The notes beneath the pieces are model-generated. The model did not search any database and was not told the DNA's origin. It saw only the letters and a program-made list of their open reading frames with translations. Of a stretch of DNA of 64,000 nt, positions 26,318 through 56,866 are shown piece by piece. The position numbers and the translations under genes were made by a program. This stretch comes from Haloplasma contractile (lineage in GTDB: Bacteria; Bacillota_I; Bacilli_A; Haloplasmatales; Haloplasmataceae). Numbering within the stretch: position 1 is the first letter of the stretch; each line of letters begins with the position of its first letter. The stretch is taken from NCBI GenBank assembly GCA_016841945.1, contig JAENYC010000001.1, positions 124,001 through 188,000 on the forward strand, in the 5' to 3' direction.

Positions 26318-26552
26318 TAAAAAAATCGCCCTACTAAAGGACGATAGTAACCGTGGTACCACCTTTATTCGTATATATTAATATACCTCAAATACCTTAA
26401 CGCGGATATACGTCATACTTACTATATTTTTTCAGTATGCAGTTCATGGGTGATTTTCTTTTTCAGTCTTATATAAGGCTTACACCATCCCTTACTCGCT
26501 ATGATAAGGTTCTGAAAAAATACTGTCCCAATCATCACTATTTTTGCTTTAT
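26318..26552 (-). ncRNA. T-box riboswitch, isoleucine-specific, upstream of ileS
   Basis: Read on the minus strand: the specifier ATC (26454-26452) lies in the context GAAAATCACCC. The T-box is AAAGGTGGTACCACGG (about 26366-26351), where TGGT complements ACCA of a tRNA with discriminator A, as in tRNA-Ile. The terminator hairpin has arms 26345-26338 and 26332-26325 and a T run to 26318. Both the specifier and the discriminator contact point to tRNA-Ile. Confidence 0.93.
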
Positions 26553-40428: not shown

Positions 40429-40816
40429 TAGTATTCATGTAAGCCATGTTCTGTACCTTTGTACTAAACGGATGCCTCCTCGTACTCAGGTGGTAATCAT
40501 TTATCTACAGATACTCTGTCCTTTGTTTTTGTTCATTTCCAAAAACAAAAGTTCCCCTACCAAATTTGGGTTTCTCGCTCGTGGGGTTTACCAACGTTCC
40601 ACACTAAATATTTCTATTTAGCATCGTCTCTGTGGCACTTTTATAGGTATTAAGACCCTGCTTTCTAAAGAAGTTTAGGTCTTTTCCCAGCCGTCAGTTT
40701 TTATAACTTCCCTAATTTATGTTTTCATTAGGCACGATCACTACAAGCATCTCAGCTTGTGCGAGCATGGACTTTCCTCATTAAAGACATGCTTTAATGC
40801 GATTACCCGAATACTA
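40429..40816 (-). ncRNA. rnpB: RNase P RNA, Bacillus type B
   Basis: The catalytic RNA that matures tRNA 5' ends. On the minus strand the conserved blocks occur in order: TTCGGGTAATCGC at the start, GAGGAAAGTCCATGCTCGC (P4 5' side), GGTAAACCCCACGAGCGAGA and CCAAATTTGGTAGGGGAAC, then GATGATTACCACCTGAGTACG and finally ACAGAACATGGCTTAC (P4 3' side). The ends pair as P1: TAGTATTC (40816-40809) with GAATACTA (40436-40429). Confidence 0.97.
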
Positions 40817-49611: not shown

Positions 49612-50379
49612 TTAATCATTTTTACAAACAAATACTGCTTCAGCTTCATTCTCATCCTGAGTAAATCCACATTTTTCATATAAATGAATTGCGACTTCAT
49701 TTGATGCTCCAACCCATAAAAAACACTTTTTACATCCATTATTTTTTGCAATATTCATGGCTTTCTGAAGTAGCTTACCTCCTAATTTGTTTCCTTGATA
49801 ATTCTTATCAATACCTAAATTTCTGATAAAACACTGCTCTGTCTTAACATCTTCTACGATGATAAAACCAATCATTTTATCTTTATCCTTTAGAGTTAAC
49901 ACCATATCTTTTTTACTTTTTATCCATTCTTCATATTCATCATATGATGCATTAAACCAATCGAATATTTTTCTTTCTAATTTAATAATTTCATCAATTT
50001 CACTTAATTGTAATGGAAAATCATTTATATTTACATCCTTAGATTGAAACTCGTTAAAATCTAATCTAAAACCAATATGAATTTCTTTTAGTGGAAAATC
50101 CCATGTCTTAATATAATTGATGAGTTTTAATAAATCATGATACTTTTTACCCACTCGAAAAATTAATGAATCCACTTGATATCTCATCTTTTTTATCCCT
50201 ACTTTTAAATCTTCTATTTCATTAACTGCCCAGAATAATTCATATTGCGACTCTACATTCTTACCTAATAGGAAAATCCCTTTTTCACTTTCATCACAAC
50301 AAATTATTTCGCCTAATTCTCCAAAGAAAAATTGTTCTTTAAAACCAAATGCTTTGTCTCTTAACTTTTCAATATTCAT
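49612..50379 (-). CDS. GNAT family acetyltransferase with N-terminal extension
   Basis: 255 residues. The C-terminal 130 residues are a GNAT domain (IRNLGIDKNYQGNKLGGKLL as motif A and YEKCGF near the end). The first 120 residues form a separate domain I do not recognise. Its start overlaps the end of the first ABC-F gene by 11 bases, so it belongs to the same operon; this suggests a role in drug or stress resistance, perhaps acetylating a compound, but this is inference. Confidence 0.7.
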   Translation of the reverse strand: MNIEKLRDKAFGFKEQFFFGELGEIICCDESEKGIFLLGKNVESQYELFWAVNEIEDLKVGIKKMRYQVDSLIFRVGKKYHDLLKLINYIKTWDFPLKEIHIGFRLDFNEFQSKDVNINDFPLQLSEIDEIIKLERKIFDWFNASYDEYEEWIKSKKDMVLTLKDKDKMIGFIIVEDVKTEQCFIRNLGIDKNYQGNKLGGKLLQKAMNIAKNNGCKKCFLWVGASNEVAIHLYEKCGFTQDENEAEAVFVCKND

Positions 50380-52114
50380 TTTTTTCTTCTCCTTTAATTT
50401 CTATTTTTTTCTTTCTATTCATTAATGTAAAGAATTCATTTTTTAATGTATGATACGCATCATCATCCGTTTTATATTTATTCATCTCTGATAATATATA
50501 GGTTATTCTATTTTGAATCAGCATTAACTCATAATCCTTATCTTTCTTTATTTCCTTTTTTTGCTGATATTCTTTAAAGCCCTCTTCTATCCTTTGAATC
50601 TTTTTATTATCAAAGATGAGTAACTTATTTGTGATTTTTTCTAATAGGTAACGGTCATGTGATGCAATAATCACCGTACCTTGATACAAGGAAAGTGTTT
50701 TTTCTAATGTCTCACGACTATGTAAATCTAGATGATTCGTCGGCTCATCGAGGATTAATACATTATTCTTTTGAATAATGAGAAAGATAAGCTTTATACG
50801 CGTTCGTTCTCCTAAACTCAACGATTTAACCTTTTGTCTTACCATACGGTTTGTAATCCCACTTGATGCTAGATAGGTTCTTATTTTTGTTTGAAGTACT
50901 TTATCATAAACTGCTATCATCTCTTCAATACTTTTCTCCTCATCTAAATCAAGTACATCTTGACTTAAATAAGCAATTTTTGCACTTTTAGATACAAAGA
51001 GTTTACCTTGATAATCATGATCCTCACCTAATATCATCTTGATTAAGGTTGTCTTACCACATCCATTGACACCGATTAAACCAATCTTTTCTCCTCTGTT
51101 AATTGAGAATTGACTGTTTTTAAATAGATATTCTTTTTCAAAGTGTTTACTTAACTGTTCAGCTGATACTAAGCACCTACCAGATTTTTTATCAGATACA
51201 AAATCAAATAATACCTGTTCTTCTTCCTTTGGTTTTTCAATTCCTTCTTCTTTCATTTTTTCTAGACGCTTAATTTTAGATTTTATTTGAACGTCTTTTT
51301 TCTTTGCTTTAGAACGCAAAAATTCTTTTCCACCTTTTCTAACTCCCATTTTTTTTGCTTTATCGGGAGCATTTTTATGTGATTGATAGGACCATTTTTT
51401 TAACCGATTGATTTCTTCATCTATTTGTCTTTCTTTTTTTCTTTGTTCCTCATAGTGATGTTTCTCTATTTCAATACTTTTTAATTTTTCATCCCTATAA
51501 GTTGTATAATTTCCATTATAACATTTTATAATTCCATGTTCTAATTCTGCAATAATATCCACAACTTGATCTAAAAAAAAGCGATCATGAGAGATAACTA
51601 GTATGGTGCCTACATATTGTTTAATCTCTTTGATTAACCAATCTATTCCTCTAAAATCTAAGTGATTCGTCGGTTCATCTAAGATTACTAAATCAGGATT
51701 GGTATTAAAGACTTCACTTAGTAAAAGTTTTGTTTTTTCTCCACCACTTAAATGATTAAACTGTTCATTTGTCCACTCATTAACTTTATTTAATCCTAAA
51801 TAACTTGTTTTCTTAAAAATAGCTTGTAATTCATCCTGCTTATTCTCAACGAGGTAATTAAAATTATTTTCCTTATAAGTAGTTGATTGTCTCAAGTAAT
51901 GAATACGCATGTTTTCATTTGTTTTCAAAATCTGTCCATTATCTATTGATTCTTCTAAAGAAATGATATTTGCTAGTGTTGTTTTCCAAGCACCATTTAA
52001 TCCTACTAAACCAATAACCGAATTTTTTTTAATATCTAAATTAATATCTTTTAAGACTTCATTAATACCAAAACTTTTTTTAATATTTTTTAACCGTAGC
52101 AACAATCTAACCAC
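50369..52114 (-). CDS. ABC-F protein, second copy (Walker A of NBD1 altered)
   Basis: 581 residues, two ATPase domains and no TM segments. NBD1 has LSGGEKTKL and LVILDEPTNHLD, but its Walker A reads GLNGAWKTT, with Trp in place of the conserved Gly. NBD2 is intact (GVNGCGKTTL, LSLGERTRI, VLILDEPTNHLD). A charged linker (about 215-285) joins them. ABC-F proteins of this type protect the ribosome from antibiotics or control translation. Codons about 269-555 are identical in DNA to the gene at 52119. The upstream frame gives GTG 52114; TTG 52105 aligns better with the first copy. Confidence 0.85.
   Translation of the reverse strand: MVRLLLRLKNIKKSFGINEVLKDINLDIKKNSVIGLVGLNGAWKTTLANIISLEESIDNGQILKTNENMRIHYLRQSTTYKENNFNYLVENKQDELQAIFKKTSYLGLNKVNEWTNEQFNHLSGGEKTKLLLSEVFNTNPDLVILDEPTNHLDFRGIDWLIKEIKQYVGTILVISHDRFFLDQVVDIIAELEHGIIKCYNGNYTTYRDEKLKSIEIEKHHYEEQRKKERQIDEEINRLKKWSYQSHKNAPDKAKKMGVRKGGKEFLRSKAKKKDVQIKSKIKRLEKMKEEGIEKPKEEEQVLFDFVSDKKSGRCLVSAEQLSKHFEKEYLFKNSQFSINRGEKIGLIGVNGCGKTTLIKMILGEDHDYQGKLFVSKSAKIAYLSQDVLDLDEEKSIEEMIAVYDKVLQTKIRTYLASSGITNRMVRQKVKSLSLGERTRIKLIFLIIQKNNVLILDEPTNHLDLHSRETLEKTLSLYQGTVIIASHDRYLLEKITNKLLIFDNKKIQRIEEGFKEYQQKKEIKKDKDYELMLIQNRITYILSEMNKYKTDDDAYHTLKNEFFTLMNRKKKIEIKGEEKNEY
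50451..51310. repeat. 860-bp direct repeat, copy 1
   Basis: Identical base for base to 52180-53039 at a constant offset of 1729, as read line by line. It encodes the end of the linker and NBD2 of the ABC-F proteins. Sequence just outside the block diverges at both ends. Confidence 0.93.
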
Positions 52115-52118
52115 CTCC

Positions 52119-53822
52119 TTATTTGTCAGTTAGTTCTCTTCTTTTTTTTATTAAATTTTGAAATTCTTCATCTAATGTTTGATACGCATCATCATCCGTT
52201 TTATATTTATTCATCTCTGATAATATATAGGTTATTCTATTTTGAATCAGCATTAACTCATAATCCTTATCTTTCTTTATTTCCTTTTTTTGCTGATATT
52301 CTTTAAAGCCCTCTTCTATCCTTTGAATCTTTTTATTATCAAAGATGAGTAACTTATTTGTGATTTTTTCTAATAGGTAACGGTCATGTGATGCAATAAT
52401 CACCGTACCTTGATACAAGGAAAGTGTTTTTTCTAATGTCTCACGACTATGTAAATCTAGATGATTCGTCGGCTCATCGAGGATTAATACATTATTCTTT
52501 TGAATAATGAGAAAGATAAGCTTTATACGCGTTCGTTCTCCTAAACTCAACGATTTAACCTTTTGTCTTACCATACGGTTTGTAATCCCACTTGATGCTA
52601 GATAGGTTCTTATTTTTGTTTGAAGTACTTTATCATAAACTGCTATCATCTCTTCAATACTTTTCTCCTCATCTAAATCAAGTACATCTTGACTTAAATA
52701 AGCAATTTTTGCACTTTTAGATACAAAGAGTTTACCTTGATAATCATGATCCTCACCTAATATCATCTTGATTAAGGTTGTCTTACCACATCCATTGACA
52801 CCGATTAAACCAATCTTTTCTCCTCTGTTAATTGAGAATTGACTGTTTTTAAATAGATATTCTTTTTCAAAGTGTTTACTTAACTGTTCAGCTGATACTA
52901 AGCACCTACCAGATTTTTTATCAGATACAAAATCAAATAATACCTGTTCTTCTTCCTTTGGTTTTTCAATTCCTTCTTCTTTCATTTTTTCTAGACGCTT
53001 AATTTTAGATTTTATTTGAACGTCTTTTTTCTTTGCTTTCATTCGCCAATATTCTTTGAAACCTTCTTTTTTAGTTGAATCTCGATGTGCAATATGAGAC
53101 CATTTTTTTAACTGATTTATTTCAGCATCAATGCGTTTCTCACGTTTTCTTTGTTCTTCATATTGATGCCTTTCATTATTGTATTTTGTTTGTTTCAGAT
53201 GACGGTACTCTGTATAATTACCATGATACATCTTAATCTGTCCATCTTCTAATTCTGCAATATTATCCACAACTTGATCTAAAAAATAACGATCGTGTGA
53301 AATTATTAAAAAGGCCTTAGAAATTTTTTTTATTTCTTTGATTAACCACTCAATTCCAATATAATCAAGATGATTCGTCGGTTCATCTAATATAAGCATA
53401 TCACTTTTTTCATTCATCACTTCGGTTATAGATAATTTCGTTTTTTCTCCACCACTTAAATGATTTAATCTATGATTTGACCAATGATTAAGACGTTTTA
53501 AACCCAATAAACTACTCGTTTCAAATATGTGTGATAAATCCTTGTTTTCATTACACAGCATATTAGTAAATTGATACTCATTATATTCACTAGATTGTTT
53601 CAAATAACTTACTGAAACATTTTTTTGAAAAGAATCTATAAAACCACTGTCACACGTTTCATACCCTGCGATAATTTTTGCTAAAGTTGTTTTTCCTGAA
53701 CCATTTAAACCCACTAATCCTATTTTAGATTCTATCTTTATATCTAAATTAATATCCTTTAATACAATGTTATCTTGAAAACATTTTTTTATATTTTTTA
53801 ATCGAAGTAAAATCAAATACAT
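52119..53822 (-). CDS. ABC-F protein, first copy (ribosome-protection type candidate)
   Basis: 567 residues with two ATPase domains. NBD1: GLNGSGKTTL (about 36-45), LSGGEKTKL, LILDEPTNHLD. Linker about 210-270. NBD2: GVNGCGKTTL, LSLGERTRI, LILDEPTNHLD. No TM segments. The charged linker (AKKKDVQIKSKIKRLEKMKE) and the attenuator leader upstream resemble antibiotic-resistance ABC-F genes such as the vga/lsa/vmlR group; the exact subclass and drug are unknown. ATG 53822 follows AAGGAGG. Four bases separate it from the second copy. Confidence 0.87.
   Translation of the reverse strand: MYLILLRLKNIKKCFQDNIVLKDINLDIKIESKIGLVGLNGSGKTTLAKIIAGYETCDSGFIDSFQKNVSVSYLKQSSEYNEYQFTNMLCNENKDLSHIFETSSLLGLKRLNHWSNHRLNHLSGGEKTKLSITEVMNEKSDMLILDEPTNHLDYIGIEWLIKEIKKISKAFLIISHDRYFLDQVVDNIAELEDGQIKMYHGNYTEYRHLKQTKYNNERHQYEEQRKREKRIDAEINQLKKWSHIAHRDSTKKEGFKEYWRMKAKKKDVQIKSKIKRLEKMKEEGIEKPKEEEQVLFDFVSDKKSGRCLVSAEQLSKHFEKEYLFKNSQFSINRGEKIGLIGVNGCGKTTLIKMILGEDHDYQGKLFVSKSAKIAYLSQDVLDLDEEKSIEEMIAVYDKVLQTKIRTYLASSGITNRMVRQKVKSLSLGERTRIKLIFLIIQKNNVLILDEPTNHLDLHSRETLEKTLSLYQGTVIIASHDRYLLEKITNKLLIFDNKKIQRIEEGFKEYQQKKEIKKDKDYELMLIQNRITYILSEMNKYKTDDDAYQTLDEEFQNLIKKRRELTDK
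52180..53039. repeat. 860-bp direct repeat, copy 2
   Basis: Second copy of the perfect repeat, in the first ABC-F gene. See 50451-51310. Confidence 0.93.
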
Positions 53823-53842
53823 GCCTCCTTTTTATAAATCTA

Positions 53843-53866
53843 TTAGTTTTTCTTTATTATAATCAT
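53843..53866 (-). CDS. Seven-codon minigene before the ABC-F operon
   Basis: ATG at 53866, stop at 53843, product MIIIKKN. It has its own strong AAGGAGG five bases upstream and lies between the attenuator and the first ABC-F gene. It may be a second regulatory ORF or simply a ribosome landing site. Confidence 0.35.
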   Translation of the reverse strand: MIIIKKN

Positions 53867-53883
53867 GTTAACCTCCTTAAACA

Positions 53884-53911
53884 CAAAAAAACCTCTCACC
53901 TAGTGAGAAGT
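53884..53911 (-). terminator. Attenuator terminator in the ABC-F leader
   Basis: On the minus strand ACTTCTCAC and GTGAGAGGT (53911-53891, one U-G pair) form a 9-bp stem with a three-base loop, followed by TTTTTTT. It lies after the 29-codon leader ORF and before the ABC-F genes, so it should stop most transcripts unless it is prevented from folding. Confidence 0.75.
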
Positions 53912-53944
53912 TCTTAATTTTATCATCCGATTTTTTATCCATGC

Positions 53945-54034
53945 CTAAAAATCGCCAGTAAACATACTCCTAGCTACGTGTAAATTAATATTTAATATGC
54001 AGTTCTTTAAATTAATTCTTGTTAACTTAATCAT
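53945..54034 (-). CDS. 29-residue leader peptide of the ABC-F operon
   Basis: An ORF from ATG 54034 to TAG 53947-53945, with GAAAGGACG about eight bases upstream. The product begins MIKLTRINLKNC and ends HVARSMFTGDF. It precedes the attenuator; a stem joins its last codons (CGATTTTT) to a downstream AAAAAATCG. Ribosome stalling on such leader ORFs by antibiotics is the known way several ABC-F genes are induced. The peptide is not one I know. Confidence 0.6.
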   Translation of the reverse strand: MIKLTRINLKNCILNINLHVARSMFTGDF

Positions 54035-54068
54035 TTTCACACGTCCTTTCTAGAAGTTTTACGTTAAC

Positions 54069-54097
54069 ATTATATTAACTATCCTCAATAATGTCAA
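54069..54097 (-). promoter_or_regulatory. Fully consensus sigma-A promoter of the ABC-F leader
   Basis: On the minus strand TTGACA (54097-54092), exactly 17 bases, TATAAT (54074-54069). Both hexamers and the spacing are perfect, as expected where control is by attenuation rather than initiation. Confidence 0.9.
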
Positions 54098-54122: not shown

Positions 54123-54746
54123 TTACACATTTCTAATCGCCACAACACGTAATAATGAAGCATCCGCTTGTATTTTTAATGGAAAAGCATAAATTTGAAA
54201 AGATGGTATATTTAATAAATCCTTTAAGCAACAAAGATTTTCAATCATTAAGATTTGATGCTTAAAGAATAATTGATGGATTGGAAAAGGATAATAATCA
54301 GGTGAAGGCGTATCCATCCCTACTATCTTGATTTTTTTATCCACTAGAAATTGTGCCAACTCTTTTGTGAGTGATGGATAATCAGTATAGTATTGATCTG
54401 TTTCATAACAGTTACTATGTCCGGTATAAACTAATACGATATCATCTTTTTGAATCAATCCCTCATATTCTTCTTTATATGAAACGAACTTTTCATTATA
54501 AGCATTCAATATAACACCATTCCCATAAAAAGAACTTAGCGAATAATCCGCTATTCTTTTCTTGTCTTTTGTCATATGCATAGGAGTGTCTATATGGGTA
54601 CCAACATGTAAACCTGTTTGAATCATAAAATTATTATAACCATCATTCGCTAAAAATTTGGTTTGGTTTAATGAAACGTGAGAATCTCCTGGATATACTG
54701 GCATATTGGTTTCTATTGTATGGGATAAATCAAATATCTTTTTAAT
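54123..54746 (-). CDS. Cyclase family protein (kynurenine formamidase-like)
   Basis: 207 residues of the metal-dependent cyclase/KynB fold. The signature HVGTHIDTPMH gives HxGTHxDxPxH; MPVYPGD and VYTGHSNCY are also typical. The reaction may be hydrolysis of an N-formyl or cyclic amide, not kynurenine in particular. The first ATG is at 54704, but homology extends upstream (KKIFDLSHTIETN) in the same frame to an ATT at 54746, eight bases after AGGAG, so an ATT start is likely. Confidence 0.85.
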   Translation of the reverse strand: MKKIFDLSHTIETNMPVYPGDSHVSLNQTKFLANDGYNNFMIQTGLHVGTHIDTPMHMTKDKKRIADYSLSSFYGNGVILNAYNEKFVSYKEEYEGLIQKDDIVLVYTGHSNCYETDQYYTDYPSLTKELAQFLVDKKIKIVGMDTPSPDYYPFPIHQLFFKHQILMIENLCCLKDLLNIPSFQIYAFPLKIQADASLLRVVAIRNV

Positions 54747-54810: not shown

Positions 54811-54860
54811 TAACAATAAAATAAACACCTGTATTTCAACAGGTGTTTATTTTATTGTTA
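54811..54860 (-). terminator. Terminator of the bactofilin operon
   Basis: A perfect 22-bp inverted repeat (54811-54832 and 54839-54860) with a six-base loop overlaps the stop codon of the last gene. Confidence 0.85.
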
Positions 54861-55562
54861 ATATTTCTCTACTTGTTTGACACCATTTTCATCCTTGATA
54901 TTACAACTTTCATGATATTCAACTAAATCAATTTTACAGTTTGGCCCTATTGTTATTTTATTACCTCGCACAGCCTTTGAAACAACATTTTCTAGATAGA
55001 TTTCATCGCCTTCAATGGTATCAATTTCAACTTCTTTACTTGTATTTGATTTAACATGAACAAACCACTTTCGATTTGGTTTAACTGTAATATTGGTGCC
55101 AACCATTTCTTTAATTTTAGAACCTTGATGTGTTGCGATTTCAATTTTTTCGCCATTTAATTGTTCACTACAATCAACATGACCATTGATATAGATATAA
55201 TCAGCTTCTAAATTACTTACTGTTGCCTGACCATAGACTTTTACCTCGTTACATCTAAAAATTGTCTTATTAAATTCTACAGCACCATATATTTTTAATA
55301 AATCTACTTTTACATCATCATTAAATTCACAAGCACCTTTAATATTTAAATATTTCACTTCAACATATTCTTCAAATTCACAAGCTCCATATAACTTTAA
55401 TGTATCGATATGACATTTTCCTTTATACTCAGCTGCGCCAAAAACCTTCATACTTTGAGCTGTTAAATCGCCTAGTACATCTGCTGAACCAAACACCCTT
55501 ACCTTGTTATAGGTTCCACCATGAATCGTAGCATCAGCGAATACTGTTAAATTATTAGCCAT
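54858..55562 (-). CDS. Bactofilin-like polymer-forming protein
   Basis: 234 residues made of short beta-helix repeats with a period near 20 (VRVFGSADVLGDL, MKVFGAAEYKG, LKLYGACEFEE, LNIKGACEFND, LKIYGAVEFN), the hallmark of bactofilins. It is likely a non-nucleotide cytoskeletal polymer, as for YhbE/YhbF of B. subtilis, which affect motility. The C-terminal third is less repetitive. It is last in an operon with a DUF4004 gene and a second bactofilin. Confidence 0.8.
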   Translation of the reverse strand: MANNLTVFADATIHGGTYNKVRVFGSADVLGDLTAQSMKVFGAAEYKGKCHIDTLKLYGACEFEEYVEVKYLNIKGACEFNDDVKVDLLKIYGAVEFNKTIFRCNEVKVYGQATVSNLEADYIYINGHVDCSEQLNGEKIEIATHQGSKIKEMVGTNITVKPNRKWFVHVKSNTSKEVEIDTIEGDEIYLENVVSKAVRGNKITIGPNCKIDLVEYHESCNIKDENGVKQVEKY

Positions 55563-55573
55563 TATTTCCCTCC

Positions 55574-56173
55574 TTAGACCATGACAATTAATTTGATATT
55601 ATCAATTAAATTTTTTAAATTTACTTTTAAAATATCGTCCACTTGATATTCTAAATTATTACTATCCTTAACGAAAATTGAAGTTAACTTATCATTACTC
55701 GTTATAAAATAAATTTCTTTGTAGTCATTTAAAATATCTTTTGCATATTTACTGATAAACTGATAGAAATTTTTTAGTTCTTCTTTTTCTTCTACAATAT
55801 GATAGATATTATCCATTAATTTTAATAATACAACATGATTAAATCCAATTGTTTCTTTTTCGTATAAATCAAATACTTCTTGATTAAAGAATAAATTTGT
55901 TTCTTTCAAATCATTTATCGTTATTTCTTTTTCACTTTGTTTTTTATTGATGATTTCACTTAATTCTTCTAACGATACTTCATCTTTTAATTCTAATATT
56001 TTATCTATTCTATCTAATATTAAATCCTTTGGAAAATATGTTTCTTGTCCGGTAAAACTAGCTCTTTTAATAAACCATTCTTCTGGTATAAGTCCTTTAC
56101 GTTTCCAACGATATAATTGTCCGTAAGAAATTCCAGTTAAAATCAATAGATCTTTTTTAGTAATTTCTTCCAT
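55574..56173 (-). CDS. DUF4004 (YhbD-like) protein with MerR-type HTH
   Basis: 199 residues. An N-terminal MerR-like helix-turn-helix (ITKKDLLILTGISYGQLYRW, then KRKGLIPEEWFIKRASFTG) is followed by a helical region (about 65-135) and an alpha/beta tail. It matches YhbD of B. subtilis, which also lies with two bactofilin genes. It may regulate this operon, binding the palindrome at 56817. Confidence 0.8.
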   Translation of the reverse strand: MEEITKKDLLILTGISYGQLYRWKRKGLIPEEWFIKRASFTGQETYFPKDLILDRIDKILELKDEVSLEELSEIINKKQSEKEITINDLKETNLFFNQEVFDLYEKETIGFNHVVLLKLMDNIYHIVEEKEELKNFYQFISKYAKDILNDYKEIYFITSNDKLTSIFVKDSNNLEYQVDDILKVNLKNLIDNIKLIVMV

Positions 56174-56184
56174 ATTTTATCACC

Positions 56185-56775
56185 TCAAACTGCTTTCTCG
56201 CTATTTTTTACTACTGCATCTGGGTCAACTTCCAAACTGGTCATATAAGTAAGGTTTTTAATTATGCAGCCTTTTCCTATTTTAACCTTATCACCAGATA
56301 CCGTGTCACAAGTGACATGTTCAATATCAATATCATCAGCTGTAATCGTATTTACCTTTAAAAAATGATTTTTAATTTTGCGTTGTTTTACTTCAACAGA
56401 GCTTCCTTCAATATTTTGTACTTTACTATTACCTGCTAAATCGAGTTTAAATGCATCACAATTTATATTGTTTTTAATTCCTAATTTTCCACTAATCTTA
56501 ATTTCTTCACTTATAATTGAGTTAGCTTTAATCAGTCCACCTACTTGAACAGATTGTGTTTCCATATCACCATTGACTTTTAAAGAACCATTCATTTTTA
56601 CGTGATCCACTTTTACACTGCCAGTAATTTTCACCAATCCATTCCCTTTTAATTTTTGTGATGTTAAATCACCATTGATTTTAAACATCCCATTAACATC
56701 CACTTCATCACAGTCTAAGTTACCAGGACTTCTCATCATCCCATTAACCGTTATAACATTTTTTTCTTCACTCAA
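56185..56775 (-). CDS. Bactofilin-like polymer-forming protein
   Basis: 196 residues with repeats such as LKGNGLVKITGS, VKMNGSLKVNGD and VQVGGLIKANS. It is a second bactofilin, different from the 54858 protein. The frame extends to 56823, but GAGGTG places the start at TTG 56775. First gene of the three-gene operon. Confidence 0.78.
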   Translation of the reverse strand: MSEEKNVITVNGMMRSPGNLDCDEVDVNGMFKINGDLTSQKLKGNGLVKITGSVKVDHVKMNGSLKVNGDMETQSVQVGGLIKANSIISEEIKISGKLGIKNNINCDAFKLDLAGNSKVQNIEGSSVEVKQRKIKNHFLKVNTITADDIDIEHVTCDTVSGDKVKIGKGCIIKNLTYMTSLEVDPDAVVKNSEKAV

Positions 56776-56816
56776 ATTAATCACCTCACTATATGATATG
56801 TTAAACGTTAATTTAC

Positions 56817-56866
56817 GTAACAATGTTTTGTTACAAATATTATACCATATTTTGAACTATTTACAA
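56817..56866 (-). promoter_or_regulatory. Promoter and palindromic operator of the bactofilin operon
   Basis: On the minus strand TTGTAA (56866-56861), 16 bases, TATAAT (56844-56839). The palindrome GTAACA-N6-TGTTAC (56817-56834) covers the expected start point, as for a repressor or MerR-type site. Confidence 0.6.

What the first reader, a model, noticed from the sequence alone, without database searches (positions are those of the whole stretch)
53823..54097. ABC-F operon behind a consensus promoter, leader ORF, attenuator and minigene
The promoter is fully consensus, so basal transcription should be high. A 29-codon ORF and then a terminator come before the two ABC-F genes, and a 7-codon ORF with a perfect Shine-Dalgarno lies between terminator and coding region. 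Known antibiotic-inducible ABC-F genes use leader-ORF stalling to prevent terminator folding; the peptide here is not one I recognise and the second minigene is an added element.
Basis: partly seen in the sequence, partly recalled or inferred. Interest (0 to 1): 0.65.

Follow-up and report, generated by a model that had tools for sequence, protein, structure and literature searches.

The report
Drug-sensing leader with conserved extra minigene
In front of a pair of ribosome-protection (antibiotic-resistance type) genes lies a conserved RNA switch that probably lets the genes be read only when a drug jams the ribosome on a small upstream reading frame, and it carries a second tiny reading frame, conserved in all three related species that have the gene and not reported in the ABC-F leader papers I could read.

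Summary
Minus strand: a 12/12 consensus promoter, a 29-codon ORF, an intrinsic terminator, a 7-codon minigene with a perfect Shine-Dalgarno (SD), then two VmlR/VmlR2-like ABC-F genes and a GNAT gene. The first ABC-F more likely starts at TTG 53816 than ATG 53822.

The same leader occurs in all three genomes of the order that carry this ABC-F, once each, in front of it, and in none of the other 387 genomes searched. Conserved: the consensus promoter, a two-helix stem holding the uORF SD, uORF start and Ile codon 2, terminator, and a minigene (MIIIKKN/MIILR/MIYLDGIPS). The uORF peptide beyond M-I is not conserved.

Best reading: vmlR-type ribosome-mediated transcription attenuation. A ribosome stalled on the first codons of the uORF opens the anti-antiterminator stem, whose 3' arm can then pair with the terminator's 5' arm. 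It differs from the published tri/tetrapeptide leaders (VmlR, VmlR2, CplR, LsaA) by a 21-29-codon uORF running through or into the switching arm, and by the post-terminator minigene (1 of 142 genes in its contig has one: this one).

The minigene's role is open: second sensor, translational booster or mRNA stabiliser. No expression data; drug induction is inferred.

The parts
54069..54097 (-). fully consensus sigma-70/sigma-A type promoter, TTGACA-17-TATAAT
   Evidence: 12/12 match; the same exact consensus in G001 and G003; 5 exact copies in 370 kb of this contig
54050..54057 (-). SL-1 outer helix, 5' arm ACTTCTAG (same ACTTCT as the terminator's 5' arm)
   Evidence: folds; conserved in 3 of 3 genomes
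54036..54044 (-). SL-1 inner helix, 5' arm, between SD and start codon of the leader ORF
   Evidence: folds; pair register 97.8% paired against 24-56% when slid
53945..54034 (-). leader ORF (uORF1), 29 codons, SD AGAAAGGA at 54044-54051
   Evidence: position, SD, ATG and Ile codon 2 conserved, remaining peptide not
53976..53984 (-). SL-1 inner helix, 3' arm (inside uORF1)
53966..53973 (-). SL-1 outer helix, 3' arm CTAGGAGT; switching arm that can instead pair with the terminator 5' arm (antiterminator)
53928..53954 (-). hairpin between the switching arm and the terminator (position of vmlR SL-2, apex of the antiterminator)
53885..53915 (-). intrinsic terminator (attenuator)
   Evidence: AACTTCTCA..TGAG stem and U tract conserved
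53843..53866 (-). post-terminator minigene MIIIKKN, SD AAGGAGG at 53872-53878
   Evidence: counterparts MIILR and MIYLDGIPS in G001 and G003; rarity controls
52119..53816 (-). ABC-F gene 1, VmlR/VmlR2-like; SD AGGAGG at 53824-53829, likely start TTG 53816
50369..52114 (-). ABC-F gene 2, tandem paralogue; shares an 860-nt identical run with gene 1; Walker A GAWKTT; altered linker tip
49612..50379 (-). GNAT-family acetyltransferase, last gene of the putative operon
   Evidence: also directly downstream of the ABC-F in G001

Best explanation
This is a ribosome-mediated transcription attenuator of the vmlR kind. A strong promoter makes a short leader RNA constantly. Without drug, either SL-1 forms or ribosomes run through uORF1 and cover the switching arm near its stop; in both cases the terminator folds and transcription stops (inferred). 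When a drug that blocks initiation or the first elongation steps (pleuromutilin, lincosamide, streptogramin A type, by analogy) holds a ribosome on codons 1-5 of uORF1, SL-1 opens, its 3' arm pairs with the terminator's 5' arm, and polymerase reads into the minigene and the ABC-F operon, whose products would protect the ribosome (inferred from homology). The minigene, read only in read-through RNA, most likely loads ribosomes just ahead of the ABC-F start and raises or tunes its translation or mRNA stability; this last step is the least certain.
For: Leader motif with up to 3 mismatches: 3 of 390 genomes, once each, always before this ABC-F, reversed control 0. SL-1 more stable than shuffles in each species, z -3.3, -3.3, -4.3; pairing kept in register although the 3' strand varies inside uORF1. 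In the nascent RNA cut at the end of the terminator 5' arm, no ribosome gives SL-1; a stall at codons 1-5 gives the antiterminator, while stalls at codons 7-11 or from 18 on add none. Terminator, uORF start, minigene SD and start are the conserved islands. Nearest solved relative is VmlR2 8BUU, 514.6 bits, and gene 1 keeps the VmlR linker motif STKKEGFKEY. The vmlR and cplR mechanisms are shown experimentally (PMC9226507, PMC10201436). Minigene rarity.
Against: No expression data. Only three leaders exist in the genomes searched and no pair changes on both sides. In the complete leader the terminator stays the minimum-energy fold even with a stalled ribosome, so the antiterminator must win by forming first. 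The predicted antiterminator is weak in the window itself, P 0.13-0.17 against 0.45-0.98 and 0.33-0.55 in the relatives, and its duplex beats shuffles only modestly, fractions 0.09, 0.018, 0.043. The NusG pause motif of vmlR is absent in two of three.
Confidence: 0.8

Rival explanations
1. The minigene is a second drug sensor: a ribosome stalled on its M-I start opens or protects the ABC-F start site, adding translational attenuation to transcription attenuation.
For: Both small ORFs begin Met-Ile in all three species (6 of 6), as does the vmlR uORF MIN (PMC9226507). Precedent: ErmB induction needs a second leader peptide, ermBL2 (PMC8274638). Start-to-SD distance 31-39 nt leaves room for a stalled ribosome next to an initiating one.
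Against: No consistent hairpin hides the ABC-F SD, and a ribosome on the minigene does not open it in the folds. Shared Met-Ile may be ancestry or A+T richness.
Confidence: 0.25
2. The minigene raises expression of read-through mRNA without sensing drug, by reinitiation or coupling onto the ABC-F or by a stabilising SD that blocks decay.
For: Minigene stop to ABC-F start is 21-26 nt while minigene length varies from 5 to 9 codons. A two-codon minigene upstream of txe raises its expression, possibly by mRNA protection (PMC8708949). SD conserved better than the peptide.
Against: The ABC-F has its own strong SD, so coupling is not needed; no direct data.
Confidence: 0.45
3. The minigene is a by-product: an older ABC-F start site left upstream after the start moved, without function.
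For: In many Bacilli VmlR2-like genes the ABC-F starts right behind the terminator, and in a few relatives a small ORF sits at that spot. Minigene MIILR of G001 resembles ABC-F starts such as MILLRLK.
Against: Kept in 3 of 3 species with perfect or near-perfect SD while most of the spacer and the codons after the start diverged.
Confidence: 0.2
4. The hairpin is an ordinary terminator of the upstream gene and the small ORFs are chance; the ABC-F genes have another promoter.
For: The upstream cyclase gene ends just before the promoter, on the same strand.
Against: The consensus promoter lies between that gene and the hairpin; the whole leader is conserved, and in G003 it accompanies the ABC-F in a different gene neighbourhood.
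Confidence: 0.04

Closest known systems
B. subtilis vmlR leader (PMC9226507)
   Same: VmlR-like ABC-F; uORF start inside the first stem-loop, a hairpin between, intrinsic terminator, mutually exclusive antiterminator; M-I uORF start; stall at initiation
   Different: vmlR uORF is the tripeptide MIN, here 21-29 codons running through or into the switching arm; vmlR has a NusG pause motif and an SD-hiding SL-4, not found consistently here; no minigene described
VmlR2 and CplR leaders (PMC10201436)
   Same: attenuation before PLSA-type ABC-F genes; VmlR2 (8BUU) is the nearest solved relative of the protein
   Different: three-codon uORFs MK[L/Q], MR[I/M]; the CplR terminator hides the gene's own SD, here terminator and ABC-F SD are about 55 nt apart
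ErmB with ermBL and ermBL2 (PMC8274638)
   Same: two small ORFs upstream of an inducible resistance gene
   Different: translational attenuation by macrolides; ermBL2 overlaps ermBL and has 16 residues; no terminator between them
mg2 minigene of axe-txe (PMC8708949)
   Same: SD-led mini-ORF upstream of a gene, acting in cis on its expression
   Different: two codons, toxin-antitoxin operon, no attenuator

Membership tests
VmlR/VmlR2-like ABC-F (ARE2) | ribosomal protection-like ABC-F family model above its cut-off | tested here: met
   NF000355 456.1 and 441.3 bits, cut-off 380
VmlR/VmlR2-like ABC-F (ARE2) | closest to VmlR2/VmlR among solved ABC-Fs | tested here: met
   8BUU 514.6 bits, 6HA8 356.3, next 240; own clade beside Paenibacillus-like VmlR2 relatives
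VmlR/VmlR2-like ABC-F (ARE2) | VmlR-type linker tip (STKKEGFKEY) | tested here: met
   gene 1 matches VmlR and VmlR2 there; gene 2 does not
VmlR/VmlR2-like ABC-F (ARE2) | resistance to pleuromutilins, lincosamides, streptogramin A | not testable with these tools
   needs expression and MIC tests
vmlR-type attenuation leader | SD-led uORF whose start lies within the first stem (anti-antiterminator) | tested here: met
vmlR-type attenuation leader | intrinsic terminator before the gene, with 5' arm able to pair with the stem's 3' arm | tested here: met
   strong in G001, moderate in G003, weak in the window
vmlR-type attenuation leader | three-codon uORF | tested here: not met
   29, 29 and 21 codons
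vmlR-type attenuation leader | NusG pause motif TTNTTT in the leader | tested here: not met
   absent in G000 and G001, one in G003
vmlR-type attenuation leader | hairpin hiding the ABC-F SD (SL-4) | tested here: inconclusive
   SD accessibility differs among the three
vmlR-type attenuation leader | induction by cognate drugs | not testable with these tools
   no expression data
Rfam cis-regulatory families | match at gathering threshold | tested here: not met
   only RNase P and a T-box elsewhere in the window

The most novel reading that the evidence does not exclude
A two-stage drug sensor: uORF1 gates transcription, and the post-terminator minigene is a second, independent stalling site that gates or boosts translation of the ABC-F on the read-through RNA, so that one drug is read twice on one leader.
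Probability: 0.22. Interest if true: 0.6.

Novelty: new variant of a known kind. Interest (0 to 1): 0.45.

Why it matters
It extends ribosome-sensing attenuation of VmlR-like ABC-F genes to a low-GC lineage in which the published uORF consensuses (tri/tetrapeptides) do not apply, shows that the conserved information is in the RNA stem and the first two codons and not in the peptide, and exposes a conserved post-terminator minigene whose role can be tested with simple reporter fusions.

Tried and rejected
Peptide-specific stalling: uORF1 peptides share only M-I among the three species. Known RNA family: no Rfam match. Other copies of the leader in the genome: none. Viral contigs: no relatives. 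Genome-contig scan: only distant ABC-Fs. Wider Bacilli sample: VmlR2-like genes have three-codon uORFs (MKL, MDN, MWN) and many start at the terminator; small ORFs behind the terminator there are sporadic, use the terminator's own GGGAGG as SD and are not clearly homologous. SD-hiding hairpin released by the minigene: not supported by folds.

Full report
WHAT IS THERE. On the minus strand between a cyclase-family gene (54123-54704) and two ABC-F genes lies a leader of about 245 nt. Its promoter is TTGACA-17-TATAAT, 12 of 12. The leader ORF (54034-53945, 29 codons) has SD AGAAAGGA; the terminator stem is 53915-53887 with a following U tract; a minigene MIIIKKN (53866-53843) stands behind AAGGAGG. 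The first ABC-F ORF is open from ATG 53822, but that ATG is 1 nt from AGGAGG, while the in-frame TTG 53816 is at 7 nt and is the likelier start (sequence). Gene 2 (50369-52114) and a GNAT gene (49612-50379) follow.

WHAT THE PROTEINS ARE. Both ABC-Fs pass the NCBIfam ribosomal-protection ABC-F cut-off (456 and 441 bits, cut-off 380). For gene 1 the nearest solved protein is VmlR2 (8BUU, 514.6 bits), then B. subtilis VmlR (356.3 bits), the next 240. Its linker reads HRDSTKKEGFKEYWRMKAKK against HAQSTKKEGFKEYHRVKAKR in VmlR. In a tree of 31 proteins the two window genes and the G001 and G003 proteins form a 100/100 clade beside Paenibacillus-like relatives. Resistance is inferred from homology only.

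CONSERVATION. Eight genomes of the window's order are held; three carry this ABC-F, and a class-wide sample of 395 genomes gave no other at E 1e-120. The relatives G001 (68% identical) and G003 (58%) have the same leader: exact consensus promoter; uORFs of 29 and 21 codons; terminator AACTTCTCA..TGAGGAG+U; minigenes MIILR and MIYLDGIPS with good SDs. The 29-base start motif ACTTYTAGAAAGGANGTGTGAANATGATY, with 3 mismatches allowed, was found once in each of these three genomes and in none of the other 387 searched, with zero in the reversed control. In G003 the gene neighbourhood differs, so the leader goes with the ABC-F. The uORF peptides share only Met-Ile. Conserved islands are the SL-1 5' arm with SD and start, the terminator, the minigene SD with ATGATT, and the ABC-F SD and start.

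THE MINIGENE IS NOT CHANCE. By one fixed rule (strong SD, ATG, stop within 12 codons, at -90 to -25), 1 of 142 genes with noncoding upstream sequence on the 370-kb contig has one: this gene. In dinucleotide shuffles of the three spacers the rule is met in 0.3, 0.4 and 0.7%. The three observations share ancestry and are not independent.

THE SWITCH. SL-1 closes with ACUUCUAG/CUAGGAGU and an inner helix; the uORF SD lies between the helices and the start codon just inside. Each species' SL-1 folds better than shuffles (z -3.29, -3.28, -4.30). On the alignment 97.8% of pair cells are standard, against 24-56% when the partner strand is slid; six pairs vary on one side, none on both. The SL-1 and terminator 5' arms share ACUUCU (ACUUUU in the SL-1 of G003), so the SL-1 3' arm can pair with either. 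In nascent RNA cut at the end of the terminator's 5' arm, SL-1 forms when no ribosome is present; with a ribosome on codons 1-5 the 3' arm shifts to the terminator arm (probability up to 0.17 in the window, 0.98 in G001, 0.55 in G003), codons 7-11 add nothing over the ribosome-free state, codons 13-17 again allow some, and from codon 18 the ribosome covers the arm. The long uORF thus also lets a translating ribosome mask the arm, which a three-codon uORF cannot do (inference). In the complete leader the terminator remains the minimum-energy fold even with the stall: the antiterminator must form first, as in the published vmlR model.

COMPARISON. For vmlR, SL-1, the uORF start and SD, and the terminator were shown by mutation to be needed for regulation (PMC9226507). 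Published uORFs are MIN (VmlR), MK[L/Q] (VmlR2), MR[I/M] (CplR), MAGN (LsaA) (PMC10201436). In Bacilli relatives found here I also read short uORFs MKL, MDN and MWN. The window's leader works like vmlR but fails two of its features: three-codon uORF and, in two of three species, the NusG pause motif. A second small ORF between attenuator and gene is not described in the ABC-F papers I could read; precedents elsewhere are ermBL2 (PMC8274638) and the axe-txe minigene (PMC8708949). The library holds open-licence papers only, and the vga(A) attenuation paper was not available, so prior description cannot be excluded.

SHOWN AND INFERRED. Shown by computation: elements, conservation, rarity, stem stability and pair register. 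Inferred: transcription start, translation of both small ORFs, drug stalling, read-through, role of the minigene, resistance.

Noticed in passing
50369-52114 and 52119-53822: The tandem ABC-F genes share an 860-nt identical run covering their 3' halves, while their 5' halves are mostly 57-75% identical by block: recent gene conversion, or possibly an assembly effect; G001 and G003 have a single copy.
   Followed up: partly
50369-52114, N-terminal part: Gene 2 has Walker A GLNGAWKTT (TGG in place of a Gly codon) and a different, longer linker tip than gene 1; it may be degenerate or have another specificity.
   Followed up: partly
49612-50379: A GNAT acetyltransferase with weak RimI similarity follows the ABC-F genes and is also directly downstream in G001; a ribosome-linked role is possible.
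   Followed up: no
54858-56823: Two repeat-rich bactofilin-like proteins flank a putative DNA-binding protein; the cluster is at least partly conserved in G001.
   Followed up: no
L033, L035, L037, L044 (Bacilli VmlR2-like loci): Small ORFs start directly behind the attenuator using the terminator's 3' arm GGGAGG as SD, at the place where other relatives start the ABC-F itself.
   Followed up: partly
26334-26544 and 40435-40814: A T-box leader and an RNase P class B RNA, both minus strand.
   Followed up: no
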